Source: Ornithodoros turicata (Eukaryota > Arthropoda > Arachnida > Ixodida > Argasidae). Taken from it: 64,000 nt of DNA. This document shows, piece after piece, positions 21,900 through 35,316 of the stretch (within the stretch, counting starts at the first letter, position 1; each line of letters opens with the position of its first letter). Both the position numbers and the translations under genes were made by a program. Where the stretch lies: assembly GCF_037126465.1 (NCBI RefSeq), contig NC_088202.1:89694160-89758159 (forward strand). Direction: 5' to 3'. The notes below the pieces were generated by a model that ran no database searches, had not been told where the DNA came from, and saw only the letters and a program-made list of their open reading frames with translations.

Positions 21900-22310
21900 C
21901 ATAGAGAATGATGTGATGTCGAATGAAGGGCATGATGTGATGTGAAGTTGAAGTTGAAGTTGAATGAACGGCATGATGTGAAGTGAAGTTGAAGTTGAGG
22001 TTGAATGAAGGGCTATGATGTGATGTGAAGTTGATGTTGAAGTTGAATGAAGGGCTATGATGGGGATTTGAAGTTGAAGTCCGCGTGATGGGTTTTGAAG
22101 TTGAAGTCCGCGTGATGGGTTTTGAAGTTGAAGTCAGTGTGGTTGGATTTGAAGTTGAAGTCCGCGTGATGGGTTTTGAGTTGAAGTCCGCGTGATGGGT
22201 TTTGAAGTTGAAGTCAGTGTGGTGGGATTTGAAACTGAAGTCTGCGCGATGAATTTTGAATATGACGGATAGGTTTCGAAGTCCTCATAATAGGTTTTGA
22301 AGCCGACAAT
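21900..22310. repeat. Satellite-like array, left arm
   Basis: Irregular tandem copies of GTGATGGGTTTTGAAGTTG with AAGTCCGC/AAGTCAGT steps (unit roughly 30-33 bp) and simpler GAAGTTGAAGTTGAAT steps. The reverse-complement array is at 25,220-25,430 (CCCATCACCGACTTC, TTCAACTTCAAAA). Confidence 0.8.
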
Positions 22311-24506
22311 GTTTAGTCGATGTATGACGTTCACGCGTCGTGACTGTTACTTGTGCGAACACGTGCGGAGTGAATGGCAAATGTGTATTGGAGTGCACCG
22401 AGCGAACATAACACGTGTCTGGTGTGGGCGTATGGGCCTAACACTGCAGATGCCTGGCGGACTTCCTCCCCCCCCCCCCTTGTTGTGTATCGGCGGTCCC
22501 AGGGAGGGAAAGTGTTTGGAACGCGTTACTCTCTGGCGTAGTGGGGCGCGGAGGGCAATGTCATGTAGGCGGAGGCAACTGTATGTTGCAAATGTGAGCG
22601 GTAGATTAGATCAAGATGCGATTTGGCGTTCTGCGGTCGCGCGGTCTGCCTGTTGCGGTTGTTCAGTTTGACTCATTTGCTCGCCTACAGCTATAATGTG
22701 CGTATATATGTATATTGGATGGGTTTGGATTTGAGCCTCAACCTTCGGTCGCGTACGCGCGTTTTACTAGACGACAGTAGATTGCTGTCGTGCTGACGAA
22801 ATGTGCTTTATTAGGCTTATTTTGTGTCTTCTTAGATTGCTTATTTTTCTTTTGTGTGATTGGGATCCAAATAGGACAAGATCGGGCTGGCATTGTTTTT
22901 GTGGACGTCTTTTATTTTAAATGTAATACACAGAGGTCACTATAGGTCTCTTATTTATCTGAGGTGCATAGGTCATGTTTTGGGAAATTATGTGTTCGGC
23001 ATGCATGTAGCATCCATTGGACACAAGTGTTCCATCAGAGCACGCAGCTGCTATTTCTTAGATATTCATCGCCAATAAAGTACATTTCAGCAGAGGCGGG
23101 GAAGTTAATTACCACCCAAAAGTTGCTAGTTACGAGTTACGTCACTAAGCTAAATATTTAATGAAGTTACAACCTTCAAGTTATCAAAATGAAATTAAGT
23201 GAGAAATAAAAGTTCTTTCTACCATGCCGAAATTAAGTTGGGAGCGGAGTTCCGAATATACCTTGTCAATTGGGCACAAAGTGAGAATTGGAATTCCAAG
23301 TTCTACGAGTTCCCATTTTCCGCGCACATTTCATAGAACCTTGCCAGTGGCCTTATCACCTTCCCCGTAAAAAAAATGCACTCCACGCACTCCAAACGAA
23401 CGCTCTGCTGCGACCTAACTCAGAAGCACGTCGGAATTGCGTTTGCGTACATCCAGTACATCGCGCTGCAACAAGGCGGAGCAGACAGGCTGCTGGCGCC
23501 GCGCACGTGCAAGAGGCGGGGTCACTGTCGTCGGATTTTTCAGCAGCAAAATAAAAAGAAAGGAGCCCGCGTTGTGCGTTCTGCCTGCCTGGACGTGAAG
23601 CGAAATAGAAATTTCTAACTTTGCTCATGATACTTTTGCGAAGTTACCTCAAAAGTGACTAACACTATACAGTCAAGTGATTATGATGAGAGGTTGTTTC
23701 AAACATCAAATAAAAACAGGTAAGAGTGGGAATTGTTATAAACTGTGTCGACACATATTTATTTAGAGATTGTGAGAGACGAAAAGAAACTGTTTCACGG
23801 ACTGTAAGTTGGTGGTCTTCCGGGCTCCTTGCAGTCTTCACTTCAATTTGCGCCTCACATTCTGTATGTATTACATGTGTCCAAACGCCTCGGTCGTTAA
23901 CAATTCACTTAGTGTTCGTCCGTATATACCCTCCTCGGAGGAAAAAGAATACAATGGGTTACACTTTTCCGAGGACATCTTCTCAGTTTTTGGTCTCAGT
24001 GATTTCTCCAGACCATGATGCATCCCTGTGACACCCCCCACCCCAAAGAAAAAAGTTTGTCGACACCCCCTGCAAAAAAGGGGGCTTGCCGTTTCAGCTG
24101 TAATGACATGTCGGTAATTATACGTGTAAAGCTGTTATCAAGTAGCGGTAATAATGACCACGCCCCCTGCTTGGGATTCCGGATGAACCACTGCAGTGGT
24201 GTATTGCATGAAAGAATTAGAGTAAAAACATATGTCCAGCGAAAGTGATTACAGGTCGCTGAATTCGTTCATGACGGCTATTTCCAGTGTCAGTAAGCAT
24301 CATGTCACAAGAACTCATGTAATACTGAGTGGCTGGCCACGATGTATTCCGATGCCGAAGCTAATACCCCCGCGTCACGAGTGAAAAATGACACGGCGGA
24401 AAAGCAGGACGTATGAAGCCACATGATCGTGCAATGTACCGGCAGACACGGCGATCGTACGAAGTCATATGAACGTTCAATGTGCCGGCAGGCAAGGGTA
24501 TCGTAC
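22311..24506. other. Interior of the foldback-like element, no gene recognised
   Basis: The stretch holds no frame with recognisable transposase, RT or host domains. It includes a C10 run at about 22,470-22,480. Open frames at 22,297-22,671, 23,288-23,554 and 24,015-24,248 do not resemble known families. Confidence 0.45.
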
Positions 24507-25254
24507 GAAGCCACATGAACCTGCAATGTGCTATGCGCTCACTTAGCTGTCAACAACGGGCGCAACATTGTGCAACAACCCTACCGCGTAAGCAACATAC
24601 CTCCCGCCGCCGTTCACATGCGACAGCGGAGGTCAAACGTTGCATCCCTCCCTTTCCTCCTTTCTTGGTGCACCCTGCTTCCAAGCCCAACCCGGAACAA
24701 GGCGACCGCACCCTCCAAACAGCATACCCCTCCTCCGCTTACGCTTTCGCCGCCACTACCTTGAAATCCACGCTAACAGGGGCGAGGAAGAAACGCCAAC
24801 GTCGTAATCCTCCAGCAGCGAGCAGCCGGGCACACCAACGTAGACCTTCGTTGGTATTCAACTTCAAAACCCCATCTGCGGTCACCCGAAGCCACATAAA
24901 CGCGCAATGTGCTATGCGCTCACTAATCTGTCAACAACGGGCGCAATATTGTGCAACAACCCTACCGCGCAACCAATACACCTTCCGCAGTTCACATGCG
25001 ACAGCGGAGGTCGAACGTGGCATCCTTCCCTTTCCTCCTTCATTGGTAAACCCTGCTTCCAAGTCCAACCGAGTGCAGGGTGACCGCACCCTCCAAGCAG
25101 CATACCCCTCCTTCGCTTACGTTTTTGCTGCCACTACCAGGAAACCCACGCAAACACAGGCGAGCAGGACGCTAGCGTCGTAATCCTGCAGCCGGGCACA
25201 ACCCACGTAGGCCTTTCTTGGAGTTCAACTCCAAAAACCCCATCACCGACTTCA
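24507..25254 (+). repeat. Tandem duplication of a ~380-bp unit
   Basis: Unit 1 (24,507-24,887) and unit 2 (24,888-25,254) share GAAGCCACATRAAC, GCAATGTGCTATGCGCTCAC, CAACAACGGGCGCAA, TTGTGCAACAACCCTACCGC, ACCGCACCCTCCAA and GCAGCCGGGCACA. A frame stays open across both (24,482-25,183), but its protein is low complexity and likely incidental. The unit ends in GTTSAACTYCAAAAMCCCATC, the same motif as the satellite arm. Confidence 0.75.
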
Positions 25255-25600
25255 GAACCCATCATAGGAATTCAACTTCAAAACCCCATCACAGACTTCA
25301 ACTTCAAAATCCATCACTGACTTCAGAACCCATCATAGGAATTCAACTTCAAAGCCCCATCACAAACTTCAACTTCAAAATCCATCACCGACTTCAGAAC
25401 CCATCATAGGAATTCAACTTCAAAACCGCGATGGGATTTGAAGTTGAATTCTGATGATGGGCTCTGAAGTTGAATGATGGGTTATGAAGTGATGAATTCT
25501 GAGGTTGAAGTTGAGTTACGGGCTCGTGATGTGATGGTTTATGACGGTGATGTGATGTGATGGGCTTTGCGGAAAACTGACCATGATGTGATGTTGAATG
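25210..25600. repeat. Satellite-like array, right arm
   Basis: Repeats of TTCAACTTCAAAAYCCATCA and CACCGACTTCAGAACCCATC run to about 25,427. The orientation then flips to GATGGGATTTGAAGTTGAAT, followed by simpler GTGATGTGATG repeats up to the terminus. The flip inside the arm means the right end is itself partly palindromic. Confidence 0.75.
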
Positions 25601-29293: not shown

Positions 29294-29399
29294 GCTGTCA
29301 TTAAATGGGTTGCTGTGTCTGAGAACGCGTCGTGTTGTCTTTTTTTCTGTTCCGTGTCTCCGGTTTTTATCTTCGTTTTACGATCAAATATGTCCGAAC

Positions 29400-29984
29400 A
29401 AGCTCCCAGCCCTCACCCCTCAATGAAGATCTGTCAAGGCAGCTGAAAGCCATGGGTCTTGACATTGCTGACGAACCCGTGAAAGCCAGCTGTGGCGTTT
29501 CGCTGCTAATCGGCAGTGATTTTTACTGGAAGATCGTCACCGATTCGGTTATCAGAACAGCTGGTAGCTGTCGTAACGCTTTTCGGATGGAAGGCCTGTC
29601 TGCGAACACCTCCAAGCAAGACGATTCTATTGGAGTAATGCAGATTGGAGTACGATCTGGAGACACTGTCGGCGATATTAACTCACAGCTGCGTGCTTTC
29701 TGGGAACTAGAGCACATGGGCATTGTCCCCCACGAACAGCCTAACCCAGATAACGACACTGCAGCGATTTCGTTCCTCGGCTTCGTTCAAAGATGGTCGG
29801 TACGTGGTATGTCTGCCATGGGATGAAGAGAAGCTGCATTGGCTGGGAGACAACAAGACGTTAGCAGTGCAGCGCCTCCAGGCCATCACAAAGAAGTTGC
29901 AGGACAAGTCACTGCTACAGGAGTACGATCAGACTATACGGGAGTATTTGAGTAATGGTCACGCTGAGCGCGTTACAGACCCTG
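29400..29984 (+). pseudogene. BEL/Pao pol, protease-RT junction (outer element, part 1)
   Basis: Segments QLKAMGLDIADEP, GVSLLIGSDFYWKIVT (end of protease), LRAFWELEHMGI, then FKDGRYVVCLPWDEEK, NKTLAVQRLQAITKKL and LLQEYDQTIREYLSNGHAER are the characteristic entry of BEL/Pao reverse transcriptase. Frameshifts occur near 29,800. The frame is cut at 29,985 by the insertion of the minus-strand element and resumes at 34,550. Confidence 0.8.
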
Positions 29985-29989
29985 AAGTC

Positions 29990-30180
29990 TGTAGAAAAGA
30001 ACAACTTCAACTGGAGAAAGAGCAGTTTAATTGCCGGATGTGGCCTGGACGAGCCCAGAAGAGACTAGAGCCGAATCAGTCGGCCGTCGTAGAGAAATGC
30101 AATCGAAAACACGCCTGCAGGCGCCAGGAACACCTGGCAGGTGATCCGGGACACGTCATCGTCGTCTCCAATTTCTTACA
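29990..30180 (-). repeat. 3' LTR of the Y-box-carrying element
   Basis: 191 bp, TG...CA bounded, with the target duplication AAGTC immediately outside. Its inner edge is preceded (in element orientation) by TTTCGCCCCGGGGAG, a plausible polypurine tract. It matches the 34,354-34,544 repeat at about 179 of 191 positions, so the insertion is not recent. Confidence 0.85.
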
Positions 30181-30189
30181 CTCCCCGGG

Positions 30190-30401
30190 GCGAAAGTGAG
30201 AAGCTGAGATATCCGAGGCCGCAGATACCAGCTCCAGTCAAAGCTCCCGCTTGTGGAGGTACTGAACGGGCAGAGGTATCTTGCACGCCCGAATGTCCGT
30301 CGCGTCCTGGCTGCACGTCGGTGATCCCCGAGCGAGAGGCGGTCACCCGAGAGGTGAGTGGAGAACTGGATCACGTCACCTACTGCTAGAATGTTTGTGC
30401 A
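30190..30401 (-). pseudogene. Integrase C-terminal tail of BEL/Pao pol
   Basis: On the minus strand, after the Y-box segment, the frame gives ILAVGDVIQFSTHLSGDRLSL, then (frameshifted) GITDVQPGRDGHSGV and RACKIPLPVQYLHKREL before a stop. The VGDV, GR-x-V-x-PGRDG and RPVQYLHKLEL-type blocks are the known ending of BEL/Pao integrase. Its presence between the Y-box segment and the 3' LTR shows that the central part of pol was lost or replaced rather than the element simply ending. Confidence 0.65.
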
Positions 30402-31037
30402 GGATTCGTTGTCCCTATAGCTCTCTACATCGTCATGCTCGCTTCCCGATCGTCTGCGATGACGCTTAAAGTACACGCCAGAGTATCTTCTTGGTGGTCT
30501 ACGTTTTACTTGCTGGTCTTTGATGTCATGGTCTTCGTACCCATACGCCCTGCGAAGGTCATTTTGAAGAGTGTTCCGTGGTAGACCTCTAAGGCGACGG
30601 TATAACCCTTGGTTAAAAGATCTCGGTATGGGTCCTGAAGGCTGTAGTAGGAGACGCCTGATGCTGCGAAGGTCTTTCGTCCCTTGTGGTGGTGGCCCTC
30701 CGCGGGACATCGAGCGACGTGGTCTGGGGAAGCAGCGTCCATTAAAACGACGCCGTGCTGCATCATGCGGATCTCCTGGAAAGGATTCTCTATCGGGTAC
30801 AGTCACATTGGCCGCTTCGCGACCTTTCTCTCCAAGAACGACGTCAAGCTTGACCACCTCTCCATCGCCTAAGCTGCGAATTACTATTTGTGGGTTGTTG
30901 CGAGTGATGACCGTGTGATGAACGAAGACGTCCTCGTGGGTGTCGTTCCGGTTGATGAAGTCATAGCCGTTCTTCAAGTTGAACCGTTTGGCAGTTCCGA
31001 GCACGCGCTCGGCGAGCACAGGCTTCTTGGTCGAATC
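30402..31037 (-). pseudogene. Y-box (cold-shock domain) gene fragment inside the LTR element
   Basis: About 212 codons are open on the minus strand: a linker (STKKPVLAERVLGTAKRF), a full cold-shock domain including NGYDFINRNDTHEDVFVHH and SLGDGEVVKLDVVLGEKGRE, AANVT, then the basic/aromatic Y-box C-terminal part (RRRFNGRCFPRPRR, GGPPPQGT, PPRRYSGVYFKRH, SGSEHDDVESYRDNES). No introns are present, so it derives from a spliced transcript. There is no poly(A) and the normal C terminus is missing. Changes at usually fixed sites include KWFN to KRFN and the RNP1 Gly to Asp (NGYDFI), while the RNP2-like VFVHH is kept. No ATG is seen at its start; it would need fusion to upstream gag/protease sequence. 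Y-box proteins bind mRNA and DNA; any function here is unproven. Confidence 0.85.
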
Positions 31038-31065
31038 ACCAATTCTATGTTTCAGATACCCTGTT

Positions 31066-31371
31066 GTGACTCCACATCGCTAAAATGGTCGTCCCAGCTA
31101 CAGAACAGTCCCTCTTCGCCATATTGGGCATCCCGAGCTACCCGGGCGGACGTTTTCCCTCCGACCAGCGGATTTCTTCCACTCTCTGAAGAAAAGGGAA
31201 AAAGAGGACAGCTTCCCGGAATCCCTCATAGCCATTAACCCCTTTCCCACGGCGCATCGGCTATTTAAGCGGGCAGCTGTAGCCCACTGGTTGTCTTCGT
31301 CTGTACATTATGTAAATATATACGGCGTCTCTCTTGTCAACCGGCCTCTGCCTCGATTTGTCTACCGCACT
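31066..31371 (+). repeat. Probable solo LTR (plus orientation)
   Basis: A ~306-bp block starts TGTGACTCCACATCGC and ends TACCGCA. It contains a TATA-like CTATTTAAG at about 31,259-31,267 and a T/A-rich TGTAAATATATAC after a possible start region, as in a Gypsy-type LTR. The flanks CTGTT and CTGTG differ by one base, a plausible 5-bp duplication. It lies exactly between the protease remnant and the Y-box segment. If it is removed, the frame upstream is continuous in phase with the Y-box frame. Confidence 0.45.
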
Positions 31372-32551
31372 GTGGGGATCTGGCCACCTACCTCCTCAGC
31401 GGCTCGCAACAGCCCTTTGCTGTATCTGCGCCGAGGAGCCAGCAGGTACTGGGAGGATGGTTGAACTATCATGAACAGTAGAGACGCTGAATGCAGTGAA
31501 ATGACTCTTTGGTATAGTGTCGGTGAATGGCATGAAGCAGGCACCTTCACGTTGAGCGTCTGAGATAGCGGGTATCTTCACGGATGAGAGGTGTGTTTCT
31601 TGACGGTTCTTGCGACACAGCGATGTTAAGTGCTTACCGGTACAGTGAGCACAGGAGAGTTGCTTGGTGCTGTGACAGTCTTTAGCCAGATGTCGTGGTT
31701 TGCCACACTTGAAACAACAGCCCGCTTGACGTAATCTTGTAAGCTTTTGCTCCGGGGTCGAGGTGGTGACGCAGTGTGCGGCGGAATGGTACTTTGATCC
31801 ACAAAGGAGGCACGGAAAGAACCTTGGGTCTCGGGTAGTCCGCGATGGTGTTGAGAGCTGCGGCAGAAGAGATTTTAGGGGTATGGCCAGAGGAAACCGA
31901 GTCTGCCTGATGGGATGGAACTTCCCTTTTCCGTGACACCATTCGTTCTCTGTGCTCTATTTCCCTCTGAAGGAAGGAAATTAGGGAGTCAAAAGTACCG
32001 GTGTCAGCTGCCGGAGAAACCTCTGTGAGTCAGTCGCTACGTGCCTCGCGTCGGTTCCAGATAGTTGTTGAGCGTGATGCCCATAATACTCTAGCTCCAA
32101 GTCTGGAGGGAGTTTTCGTAGCAGTGCCGTCGTAAGTTCTATGCTGTAAGCACTCTCGGGAACTTGTAAGCTCTTCAAATTTCGCATCCGTACTCTCACA
32201 GTGTCATGAAGTCACATCGTCACATCGTCAGAGTATCTTACATGAGGGAGTTCCAGAAGCTGTCCCATATGCTCTGCGATGAGTCGATCCCGATTCCCGA
32301 ACTGTTGTTTTAAGGTGCTAATGGCTGTCGGATAATTGTCCACAGTTAAGTCGAGTCCCTTTATGGCCAACTCAGCCTTTCCCTTGACAAGCGAACGCAG
32401 ATATTGAAATTTAGCAATTACTGAAAGAGACGGGTTCTCGTGAACACCGGAGTTGAACTGATCCCAGAACGATTGCCACGCTAATAACTCTCCCGCAAAC
32501 GAGTCAATCTGAAGTTTGGGCAAGCGTGGCCTGTTAGCGGGAGGGCGTGGG

Positions 32552-33950
32552 CAGGGAAAGGTAACGGAATCTTTTTAGTTTCCGTTACCACCTCCGTTAC
32601 TGGCCATTATTGGTTTCACTTTCGGTTGCTTTCGTTTCCGTTACGCTTCCGTTTCGGTACCGCCCAACCTCCAGCTTTGTTTTCCTTCTTTCTTTTCTTT
32701 CCTTTTTTTTTAAAAAAAGACCATTGAGACCGTGACAAAACCTAATCCCTCTATGTTCTGAAGTCTATTTTGAGGACTCCAGGGATACATGCATACAAGA
32801 GACAACGTTTATTCAACACACACCTTTATTTTGAGATGGAGAGTGGGGGGGTTCATCGCCAGAGGCGATACTCTACCCCATTGCTGGTGGGGATGTGGGG
32901 AATAAAATCCGATCGAAGTCCGATGATGTCCAGAAATGTCAAAAGAGCTTTGAGCGCAGATCGTTGCTGGGCTGGATTGGGCCAGGGACCAAGCAATGTC
33001 GATAGGGAGAAGGGGGCGAGAGTCCAGCTGACTAAGAGATCGGAGAGTGCGGTTCGGGAAGGTTGGTAGAGGGGGCAATGAAGAATGTGCTCCAGATCCT
33101 CAAGAGCACCACAGTGGTATATAGCAGGTGGGAGAGTCAACTTGTCTCAAGCGGTAACGTCGCTGAGCTGTAAAGGCCACATCGAGTAGCATTCAGTGGA
33201 TTAATGCAGCATCTTGACGAGAAGTGTTTCGTGGCATTCGGAAAGCGAGCGTTTGATCAACTCTGCTCAACATAGACGGGGGGAGAATGTCGGTTGTCCA
33301 TTGGCGGGAAGCCAGGGGTGTCACGAGGCGCCGCAGAATGGAACGACGGTCTCCTCTCAGCAGAGCAATACTGGTCCGTGTCCGATACGAGTGCTGCTTC
33401 TGCGGCGCTGTCGGCCTGCTCGTTCCCCACGACACCACAATGGGCTGGAACCCACTTGAGTACTAGCCTGTGGCCTGCTGCGTAGACAGTGTGGTAAGCC
33501 ACTCAGCTTACCGCGCACACTTCCATTCGGCGCGTTTATTTAAAATACACGTATAGGTACGTGATTTCTGTGAACAGCTAATATAAACATGGCTTCCACG
33601 AATGTTACTCACGCTTGCAACTTCCAGGTCACCATAAGCGTGTAAGAACTATGCTTTTTACTGTATACTACTTACTTATATGCTCCAGTTTGAGAGTTCA
33701 TTTTAGTTTTAGTTCTTCGGTTAATTTTAGTTTGCCTCATTGAGGTTTATTTCATAAATTTATCTACATGATATGGTGAAGATTTGCAATAATTCGGGTC
33801 CTGCTGTACCCGAATTATTGCCGTAAATTATTGTCGCTTCCGTTTCTGTTTCAGGTATTCTAACTGTTCGATATCAGTTTCCGTTTCTGTTACCGTTACC
33901 TGCTATATTTCCGGTATAATACCCGTTTCCGTTTCTGTTACCTTTCCCTG
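32552..33950. mobile_element. Non-autonomous hAT transposon in the gag
   Basis: The ends are CAGGGAAAGGTAACGG and, reverse-complemented, CAGGGAAAGGTAACAG. Exact 8-bp duplications GGCGTGGG flank it (32,544-32,551; 33,951-33,958). Sub-terminal repeats of CGTTTCCGTTAC / GGAAACGGAAAC lie at both sides (32,580-32,660; 33,835-33,940), a common hAT feature. It contains no hAT transposase but does contain a LINE 3' fragment. Confidence 0.85.
32800..33510 (-). pseudogene. 5'-truncated LINE 3' end inside the hAT element
   Basis: On the minus strand the RNase H end LVLKWVPAHCGVVGNEQADS is followed by MPRNTSRQDAALIH, then (frameshifted) a C-terminal finger region (YHCGALEDLEHILHCPLY) and a helical tail (SDLLVSWTLAP). 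An AATAAA occurs downstream in its sense (TTGAATAAACG, near 32,810). It is the same domain arrangement as the LINE at 5,449-9,900 but a different family by sequence. Confidence 0.7.
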
Positions 33951-34332
33951 GGCGTGGGGCCGGTGTTCCGTTAGAGGTGGATGGCCTGTCATGGGCGCTT
34001 GAAGGTGACTGTACGTGAGAGATGTCGATTGGCACTGAGTGTTGCCTGAGCAATAGTTTCCAGATACTGATCGCATCGTTGCGCCTCAGCATCAATCTCT
34101 TGATCGTCGGCAATTGCTGCTATTTCGCGGCCTTCGCGGTAAGGAGAGAAAGCTTCAACTCAAGGTCTGGACGTGAAGGACCTTCAGCACTGAGAATTTC
34201 CTTGATTTCGTCAGCCAGCTTCGTAATTCGTGACCGAACCGGGGCGCGTAGCTTTCGAAGGCGGTCCATAGTTGGAGTTCTTTTGCAGATATTCCAGAAG
34301 AGAAGTGGGTTCCAGAAGAGACGTGGGCTCCT

Positions 34333-34350
34333 GGGTTTCGGCACCAAAAA
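34333..34350 (-). promoter_or_regulatory. Primer-binding site of the Y-box-carrying element
   Basis: Three to four bases inside the 5' LTR the minus strand reads TTTTTGGTGCCGAAACCC. TGGTGCCGAAACC is complementary to the 3' end of a tRNA ending in CCA and is the typical BEL/Pao primer-binding sequence. Confidence 0.7.
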
Positions 34351-34353
34351 TCG

Positions 34354-34544
34354 TGCAGAAAAGAACAACTTCAACTGGAGAAAGAGCAGTTTAACTGCCC
34401 GCTGTGGTCGGGACGAGCCCACAAGAGACTAGAGCCGAATCAGTCAGCCGTCGTAGAGGAAAGCAATCGAAAACACGCGCGCAGGCGCCAGGAACACCTG
34501 GCAGGTGATCCGGGACACGTCATCGTCGTCTCCAATTTCTTACA
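34354..34544 (-). repeat. 5' LTR of the Y-box-carrying element
   Basis: 191 bp, bounded TG...CA, partner of 29,990-30,180. It is followed outside by AAGTC, identical to the five bases before the other LTR. Confidence 0.85.
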
Positions 34545-34549
34545 AAGTC

Positions 34550-34860
34550 AATTTAGGACCAGTCTACTATATGCCACATCACACGGTAATTAGAAGAGAC
34601 CGTGAAGCCACCGAAGTCCGCATCGTCTTCGATACCTCATCTACGGCATCTGGTTGCGTCTCGCTTAATGAAGCTCTCCATTCTGAACCCGGATGTGCTG
34701 GATCTACCCTTGCGCTTCCGCACTTACCCGGTAGCCCTTATAGCGGACGTCGAGAAAGCTTTTCCACAAATTGTACTGGATAAACACGACCGGGAGTGTT
34801 TTAGATTTTTCCGGTACGCAACAACCCCCCACGTGAAAGAGCCTCTACCTCCATTAGAGA
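34550..34860 (+). pseudogene. BEL/Pao RT continued (outer element, part 2)
   Basis: After the insertion the plus-strand frame reads NLGPVYYMPHHTVIRRDREA, EVRIVFDTSS, VSLNEALHSE, then frameshifted LRFRTYPVALIADVEKAF, QIVLDKHDRECFRFF. These are the RT blocks that directly follow the part ending at 29,984. YMPHH-x-VIR and ADVEKAF-x-QI (the catalytic Asp) are BEL/Pao signatures. The similarity fades after 34,860, so block C is lost. Confidence 0.8.
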
Positions 34861-35316
34861 AGGCGAATGACTCGGCGCAAGGTCTAGCCCATTCCTCTTT
34901 GAGGCAACACTCAGACATCACTTGCATTCGACCGCAGGCTCTCACCCTGAAACCGCCCAGTTGCAGTTCTGATGTGAAGCGACCAGCATGAATGGGACTA
35001 CCAAGCAGCAGTTCACAAATTAACCCCAGTTGACGTTCCAAAAACGAGGCCGTACTTCGATTTAAACTGCAGCGTAAATATGTGTAATACTCCGCAAAGT
35101 ACTTCGTAAATGACAATAAAGTACATTACTATACACGGTTGTAGACAGAGTTGTTTCTTCCAATATTCCAATTTTGTGCAGCACAGTGTAGTGTGGGTTC
35201 AGTGTAGAAACGAACGGAACCAATGAATCGCGACGCACTTTGCACTGAAGCGCACAGTGTAACATTCTAGCCAGTATAATCCTTTTCTGCACAGCAACGA
35301 TCAGTAGGATTCGCCA
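34861..35316. other. No gene recognised
   Basis: Sequence between the decayed BEL/Pao RT and the MITE at 35,319. It encodes no recognisable domain. Confidence 0.4.

What the first reader, a model, noticed from the sequence alone, without database searches (positions are those of the whole stretch)
29990..34544. LTR retrotransposon that has acquired a Y-box (cold-shock) gene in place of most of pol
Seen: paired 191-bp LTRs, exact 5-bp duplication AAGTC, primer-binding site, BEL/Pao gag with three zinc knuckles, a 212-codon open Y-box segment in the same orientation, then the last codons of integrase before the 3' LTR. Known: BEL/Pao elements normally have PR-RT-RH-IN between gag and 3' LTR, and capture of cellular genes is well documented for retroviruses but uncommon for BEL/Pao elements. 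Inference: an intronless Y-box transcript was recombined into the element (no poly(A), both Y-box ends truncated, pol resumes at its very end). This is like oncogene capture and distinct from a simple processed pseudogene. An RNA-binding cargo inside a gag-only element could act in packaging or in host mRNA control.
Basis: partly seen in the sequence, partly recalled or inferred. Interest (0 to 1): 0.93.

Follow-up and report, generated by a model that had tools for sequence, protein, structure and literature searches.

The report
Tick retrotransposon family carrying Y-box gene
A tick genome holds a family of jumping genetic elements in which most of the copying enzymes are replaced by a host RNA-binding protein joined to the element's shell protein, and predicted proteins suggest that elements in two other ticks did much the same with the same host gene.

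Summary
The element has 191-bp LTRs, a 5-bp duplication, PBS, BEL/Pao-type gag, a Y-box segment and an integrase tail, plus two later insertions. It is one of 39 Y-box copies aligned. Of 32 loci with a locatable start, 27 share one gag/Y-box junction, which the host gene lacks. Four copies have their own LTR pair and target duplication, so the chimera moved. In 13 of 20 copies (duplicates dropped) gag reads in frame into Y-box. While the lineage spread, the cold-shock domain was constrained (omega 0.48-0.49); inserted copies drifted (0.90-0.92). That signal is not significant when one subgroup is dropped. The window copy is dead: start codon and a key Trp are lost. Gene models of Rhipicephalus microplus and Ixodes persulcatus join another retroelement's protease region to Y-box, each grouping with its own genus: probably three captures, unproven at DNA level. 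Best reading: a helper-dependent element that encoded a Gag-Y-box fusion, perhaps for RNA packaging. Host-gene capture by LTR elements is known; this form of it appears new.

The parts
29985..29989 (.). target-site duplication, left copy (AAGTC)
29990..30180 (-). 3' LTR
   Evidence: 12 of 191 positions differ from the 5' LTR
30181..30401 (-). integrase C-terminal tail and 3' untranslated part, frame broken in the window
   Evidence: same tail in other copies; DUF5641 match in L007 at E=3e-4, below the curated cut-off
30402..31043 (-). Y-box segment: host residues 1-215, open over 213 codons, start codon ATT, Trp21 to Arg, Gly29 to Asp
31044..31052 (-). remnant of the linker that derives from the stretch before the host start codon
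31053..31411 (.). later insertion, probably a solo LTR (31062-31408, + orientation, TGTTG..CAACA) of another element; no exact target duplication found
   Evidence: absent from the other copies
31412..31956 (-). gag C-terminal part with three zinc knuckles (by eye)
32212..32551 (-). gag middle part, DUF1759
   Evidence: E=4.6e-25 for 32212-32574:-
32552..33950 (.). later hAT-like insertion (8-bp duplication GGCGTGGG, CAGGG..CCCTG ends) holding a LINE ORF2/RNase H piece
   Evidence: absent from L007 and L008; RNase H E=1.5e-5, 25.7 bits against a cut-off of 25.8; the duplication was read by eye from the print, whose scan started one base too far right and reported none
33959..34332 (-). gag N-terminal part and leader
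34333..34346 (-). primer-binding site TGGTGCCGAAACCC
   Evidence: same motif in L007 and L008, one change in L012
34354..34544 (-). 5' LTR
34545..34549 (.). target-site duplication, right copy (AAGTC)

Best explanation
A dead copy of an old, non-autonomous LTR retrotransposon lineage of BEL/Pao type in Ornithodoros turicata. Shown: one shared junction puts a host Y-box gene (roughly 40-50 nt before the start codon, then codons 1 to about 296) straight behind the gag zinc knuckles; in the window's subfamily the segment ends near codon 215-223 and is followed by the last part of integrase; four copies have their own LTRs and target duplications. Inferred: reverse transcriptase switched from element RNA to Y-box mRNA and back; the stretch before the start codon reads as an open linker, so the ancestral product was a Gag-Y-box fusion; the element moved with enzymes of pol-bearing relatives; the fused cold-shock domain served the element, most likely by binding, protecting or packaging RNA in its particles.
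For: Copies and junction: 55 matches; feature maps; junction in 27 of 32 loci. Own duplications: window AAGTC (24), L007 GTATT (69), L012 CCAGT (53), L008 ACTAT (69, 93). Gag upstream of Y-box in members of all four subgroups, from 33% to over 90% protein identity to window gag. In frame with an open linker in 13 of 20 copies, nominal p=0.004 against one third. Four chimera copies form a clade apart from the host gene when rooted with other ticks, support 100. Cold-shock domain, internal branches: omega 0.48, p=0.0017 against 1, 28 sequences; 0.49, p=0.003, 27 sequences; 80 bootstraps 0.31-0.74. Terminal branches 0.90-0.92. Gag control, 10 sequences: 0.32 internal, 0.89 terminal. YB-1 supports production of HIV, MLV vectors and MMTV through RNA (PMC6040738, passages).
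Against: No transcript or protein evidence. Without subgroup D the cold-shock value is 0.65 and not significant (p=0.20 against 1, p=0.53 against terminal). The Y-box tail is not significant (p=0.27; p=0.55). Conservation at four binding residues misses significance (0.06). The gag control leans on the long branch between groups A and C and holds three group C copies (L016, L028, L046). Copies share ancestry, so the p is nominal; with duplicates kept it is 13 of 27. 36 of 39 aligned copies have stops or frameshifts. RNA-level capture is unproven because the host gene has no coding introns. The pol-bearing partner was not found, as the searches did not complete.
Confidence: 0.76

Rival explanations
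1. Passenger capture: the Y-box segment was picked up once by template switching and carried along without a function, because gag and the ends of the element were enough for mobilisation by helpers.
For: Y-box tail not significantly constrained; the segment shortened in subfamily A; cold-shock signal lost without subgroup D.
Against: Cold-shock omega 0.48-0.49 on internal against about 0.9 on terminal branches; in-frame open linker kept in subfamilies A and B; similar gene models in two other tick genera.
Confidence: 0.2
2. Processed pseudogene: a Y-box mRNA was copied by LINE machinery into an existing LTR element, a one-off event.
For: Y-box copies without coding introns; LINE pieces are common nearby.
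Against: 27 of 32 loci share the junction; 3' truncated with 5' end kept, no poly(A) seen, no duplication around the Y-box itself; the host gene has no coding introns anyway.
Confidence: 0.02
3. DNA-level origin: a stretch of the intronless host gene joined gag by genomic recombination, and the chimera was then mobilised by its LTRs.
For: Host gene uninterrupted, so capture from DNA leaves the same trace; homology starts a short way before the start codon.
Against: Homology also ends inside the gene (codon about 296 in 15 of 39 copies) and both joins lie inside an LTR element, which fits template switching; neither route is tested directly.
Confidence: 0.2

Closest known systems
Crocodilian endogenous retroviruses CrocERV29 (KIT-ligand) and CrocERV31 (nectin3), PMC4299795 (passages)
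   Same: Host mRNA captured by an LTR retroelement, several copies, codon tests read as purifying selection; nectin3 takes the place of env.
   Different: Vertebrate retroviruses; cargo is a signalling or adhesion protein. Here a BEL/Pao-type element, an RNA-binding cargo in frame with gag, and most of pol lost.
Bs1 of maize (PMC13317346 and PMC7264820, passages)
   Same: LTR element carrying pieces of host genes.
   Different: Plant; pieces of three genes, none full-length; no RNA-binding protein named in the passages.
LTR-mediated retroposition by template switching (Tan et al. 2016, not held; described in PMC9674220 and PMC8232201, passages)
   Same: The proposed mechanism of the chimera, a host mRNA segment inside LTR element sequence.
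   Different: There the products are retrocopies of host genes; here the chimera multiplied as an element family.
Gag-onc fusions of transforming retroviruses (recalled, no call)
   Same: Host protein joined in frame behind Gag, helper-dependent.
   Different: Different superfamily; cargo here binds RNA; germ-line spread over a long time.

Membership tests
BEL/Pao LTR retrotransposon | LTR pair, TG..CA ends, short target duplication, primer-binding site | tested here: met
   tRNA not identified
BEL/Pao LTR retrotransposon | BEL/Pao-type gag (DUF1759) and integrase end (DUF5641); that these mark BEL/Pao is recalled | tested here: met
   DUF1759 E=4.6e-25; DUF5641 in L007 E=3e-4, below its cut-off
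BEL/Pao LTR retrotransposon | protease, reverse transcriptase, RNase H and integrase between gag and 3' LTR | tested here: not met
   Y-box runs into the integrase tail in nine group A loci; it is a derivative, not an autonomous member
BEL/Pao LTR retrotransposon | place in a reverse transcriptase tree | not testable with these tools
   no reverse transcriptase in the element
Host-gene capture by an LTR element | host gene segment between element sequences inside LTRs, moved as one unit | tested here: met
Processed pseudogene (LINE-made) | poly(A), 5' truncation, duplication around the copy itself | tested here: not met
   5' end kept, 3' end cut, no poly(A) seen at the junction
Y-box (cold-shock domain) protein | cold-shock domain with its nucleic-acid-binding residues | tested here: inconclusive
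   CSD E=8.9e-16, but Trp21 and Gly29 changed in the window; Trp21 kept in 19 of the 24 copies with that codon readable, of 28 used

The most novel reading that the evidence does not exclude
LTR retroelements of ticks have repeatedly and independently recruited the same arachnid Y-box mRNA-binding protein as a module joined in frame to Gag or Gag-protease (a BEL/Pao-type element in Ornithodoros, another lineage in Rhipicephalus, and again in Ixodes): a convergent way for elements to gain RNA packaging or protection, or to escape RNA silencing.
Probability: 0.5. Interest if true: 0.93.

Novelty: new variant of a known kind. Interest (0 to 1): 0.85.

Why it matters
Host-gene capture by LTR elements is known, but it is seldom shown that an element kept the captured gene under constraint, and repeated capture of one gene by different elements would be a natural experiment on what a retroelement can use. 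YB-1 is a known helper of retroviruses (PMC6040738, passages); a Gag-joined Y-box would be a case of an element making a host dependence part of itself. A practical point: at least two tick gene models named as Y-box proteins (P0002, P0003) lie in copies of a mobile element.

Tried and rejected
Gag search with 31396-31956:- gave no hit at E 1e-3 among 37 candidates of similar length. Pfam on flanking + strand frames gave nothing, so the idea that the element sits in another BEL/Pao pol rests on my eye. A first solo-LTR boundary (31065-31369 with a 4-bp CTGT duplication) was dropped when other copies showed the insertion to be 31053-31411. Counting in-frame copies by hand gave little more than the third expected by chance; the fixed-anchor count replaced it. 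Stop-free length upstream did not separate the frames (medians 28, 0, 32 over 31 loci). The tree is rooted on the host gene, so it cannot show that the copies form one group; I use (four copies only) and the shared junction for that. P0084 (gag, CSD, integrase H2C2) was not counted as a chimera: its Y-box groups with the canonical Rhipicephalus ones and the gene model may be a mis-join. The superfamily of the Rhipicephalus and Ixodes elements was not fixed: Asp_protease_2 E=0.004-0.04 in the Ixodes models and no protease match in P0085 or P0087, zf-CCHC E=0.08, all below cut-offs; window gag and P0085 show a weak match, 28% over 124 residues, E=4e-4. Literature: no paper on Y-box capture by a retrotransposon in the listings; only open-licence PMC papers are held. 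Rows left out before counts: one search used 28 and one search used 27 of the 35 sequences (likely segmental duplicates and close pairs dropped); one search examined 35 loci, 3 without a locatable start; one search used 20 of 27.
Full report
WHAT IS THERE. On the minus strand of 29990-34544 lies an LTR element with 191-bp LTRs (12 differences, K2P 0.066), the duplication AAGTC, a primer-binding site, gag with DUF1759 (E=4.6e-25) and three zinc knuckles read by eye, a cold-shock-domain segment (E=8.9e-16), and a tail before the 3' LTR. In copy L007 this tail matches DUF5641 at E=3e-4, a little under Pfam's cut-off; that DUF1759 and DUF5641 are typical of BEL/Pao is recalled. Two stretches are later insertions missing from other copies: 31053-31411, probably a solo LTR of another element, and 32552-33950, a hAT-like insertion with a LINE piece.

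SOURCE. The best protein matches to the Y-box segment are from Ornithodoros turicata, and the lengths of their contigs (84,440,111 and 235,596,939) are those of contigs C5 and C1 of the window's assembly. The gene of P0001 is in L019 on C5: 385 codons, 100% identical, one uninterrupted frame. The host gene therefore has no coding introns, and the lack of introns in the captured piece says nothing about an RNA intermediate. The gene models P0002, P0003 and P0004 are best matched by L010, L006 and L011. L010 and L006 lie in copies of this element; L011 has the Y-box and part of the linker but no recognisable gag end.

A MOBILE FAMILY. One genome search was answered: 55 matches, 40 of 77 candidates scored, so counts are lower bounds. 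I aligned 39 Y-box copies, segmental duplicates included, to the host gene. Of 35 loci examined for the 5' junction, 3 had no locatable start; 27 of the other 32 carry the gag end directly before the linker, and the stretch upstream of the host gene does not resemble it. The five without it are the window (interrupted by the solo LTR), L009, L011, L027 and L049. In those 27 loci homology to the host begins mostly 35-51 nt before the start codon, as far as the aligner goes (L022 at 28). It ends at codon 296 in 15 of 39 copies and near 209-223 in most of the window's subfamily A; translated searches reach 304 and 317 in two copies. In nine group A loci (L001-L004, L006, L007, L010, L017, L030) the integrase tail follows the Y-box directly or within about 100 bp, with LTR sequence after it, leaving no room for protease or reverse transcriptase. 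Four insertions have their own LTR pair and target duplication: the window (AAGTC), L007 (GTATT, K2P 0.046), L012 (CCAGT, K2P 0.060; a compact 2,553-bp LTR-gag-Y-box-LTR element) and L008 (ACTAT, read by eye; K2P 0.20, rough). Group C (L013-L016, L022, L028, L029) and the pair L041/L042 look like segmental duplicates and were thinned before the rate tests. The tree is rooted on the host gene and so cannot show that the copies form one group; in a tree rooted with other species, four chimera copies (window, L006, L010, L011) do, with support 100, and the shared junction in subgroups A, B, C and D says the same.

A GAG-Y-BOX JOIN IN FRAME. From a 13-nt anchor that lies in the zinc-knuckle frame of window gag, 13 of 20 copies (7 likely duplicates dropped) keep exactly 69 nt to the Y-box start, with an open in-frame linker in each of the 13; nominal p=0.004 against one third, since copies share ancestry. 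With duplicates kept it is 13 of 27. The linker resembles the stretch before the host start codon, presumably 5'UTR (no transcript was seen). The ancestral product was therefore probably one protein, Gag followed by the Y-box protein.

SELECTION. With a branch codon model of my own on a fixed tree, the cold-shock domain (codons 1-95) has omega 0.48 on internal branches (28 sequences; p=0.0017 against 1, p=0.013 against terminal branches) and 0.92 on terminal ones. With 27 sequences it is 0.49 (p=0.003; p=0.026) and 0.90; 80 codon bootstraps give 0.31-0.74 and 0.77-1.05. The whole segment gives 0.67 (p=0.007) and 0.71 (p=0.03; p=0.08 against terminal). Gag, 10 sequences, gives 0.32 and 0.89, but leans on the long branch between groups A and C. 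Against the reading: the Y-box tail is not significant (0.80, p=0.27; 0.87, p=0.55), and without subgroup D the cold-shock value is 0.65 and not significant (p=0.20), so the signal lies on deep branches. The D copies L025, L041, L042 and L043 carry the shared junction, so those branches do belong to the element. Four residues that bind nucleic acid in YB-1 (named from memory) are kept in 87% of readable cells against 74% for the domain; random sets of four do as well in 6%. The window copy is dead: ATT for ATG, Trp21 to Arg, Gly29 to Asp, gag broken. It and two partial copies (L030, 66 codons; L040, 129 codons) are the 3 of 39 without stop or frameshift.

OTHER TICKS. The last protein search (120 of 3461 hits listed) showed gene models of Rhipicephalus microplus in which another retroelement's sequence runs into a Y-box protein. 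Six models share the join (E/K)KW-PLPKIT..LAMGEESRF (P0083, P0085, P0086, P0087, P0099, P0111); P0085 and P0087 have the protease-like part. In Ixodes persulcatus six models share KAPTVD before the Y-box (P0009, P0014, P0015, P0071, P0072, P0075), three of them with the protease-like part, about 49% identical to that of Rhipicephalus. Pfam supports the protease weakly (Asp_protease_2 E=0.004-0.04 in the Ixodes models, none in P0085 or P0087). The tick tree puts each set with its own genus: Ornithodoros 100, Rhipicephalus 100, Ixodes 81; within Rhipicephalus the chimeras are not resolved as one clade (37). The join lies behind the protease region, not behind gag as in the window, though window gag and P0085 share a weak match (28% over 124 residues, E=4e-4). 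This points to separate captures of the same host gene in three genera.

LITERATURE. Capture of host mRNA by LTR elements is established: KIT-ligand and nectin3 in crocodilian retroviruses (PMC4299795, passages), Bs1 in maize (PMC13317346, PMC7264820, passages), template switching as mechanism (PMC9674220, PMC8232201, passages; Tan et al. 2016 not held). YB-1 supports HIV replication, and MLV vector and MMTV production in an RNA-dependent manner (PMC6040738, passages). No paper on Y-box capture by a retrotransposon appeared in the listings.

JUDGEMENT. Shown: a mobile chimeric family with one capture junction. Well supported: an ancestral in-frame join of gag and Y-box. Supported with a caveat: constraint on the cold-shock domain while the family spread. 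Likely but to be checked in DNA: separate captures in three tick genera. Inferred only: template switching, helper dependence, and a role in RNA packaging or protection.

Noticed in passing
window 32552-33950: 1.4-kb insertion with an 8-bp duplication and CAGGG..CCCTG ends (hAT-like), holding TTTCCGTTACC-type repeats and a LINE ORF2/RNase H piece; LINE-related pieces recur near several other copies.
   Followed up: partly
window 31053-31411: Probable solo LTR of another element in + orientation (TATTTAAG box, TGTTG..CAACA) between gag and Y-box; no exact target duplication found.
   Followed up: partly
window 29323-29826 and 34590-34991, + strand: Flanking frames look by eye like another BEL/Pao pol into which this element inserted; no Pfam match.
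   Followed up: partly
window 22037-22292, 24506-25169, 25235-25447: Tandem 27-bp and 71-bp repeats around the words GAAGTTGAAGTC and its complement, and 102- and 185-bp repeats about 380 bp apart.
   Followed up: no
L041 and L042 (C4, 23.81 and 23.09 Mb): Nearly the whole 10-kb stretches are 92-97% alike: a segmental duplication carrying an old Y-box element copy.
   Followed up: partly
L013-L016 (C1, 206-214 Mb), L022, L028, L029: Group C copies are alike far beyond the Y-box, and five of the seven have the anchor-to-start spacing one base short; apparently one dead copy multiplied by duplication.
   Followed up: partly
L019:1483-2637: The O. turicata Y-box gene of this type is uninterrupted over 385 codons; a second tick Y-box paralogue (P0110 type) stands apart in the tree.
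   Followed up: partly
L006 and L010: The last 48 residues of the gene models P0002 and P0003 map to the 3' LTR and the DNA behind it, and the two loci stay alike past the LTR: annotation artefacts on a duplicated element.
   Followed up: partly
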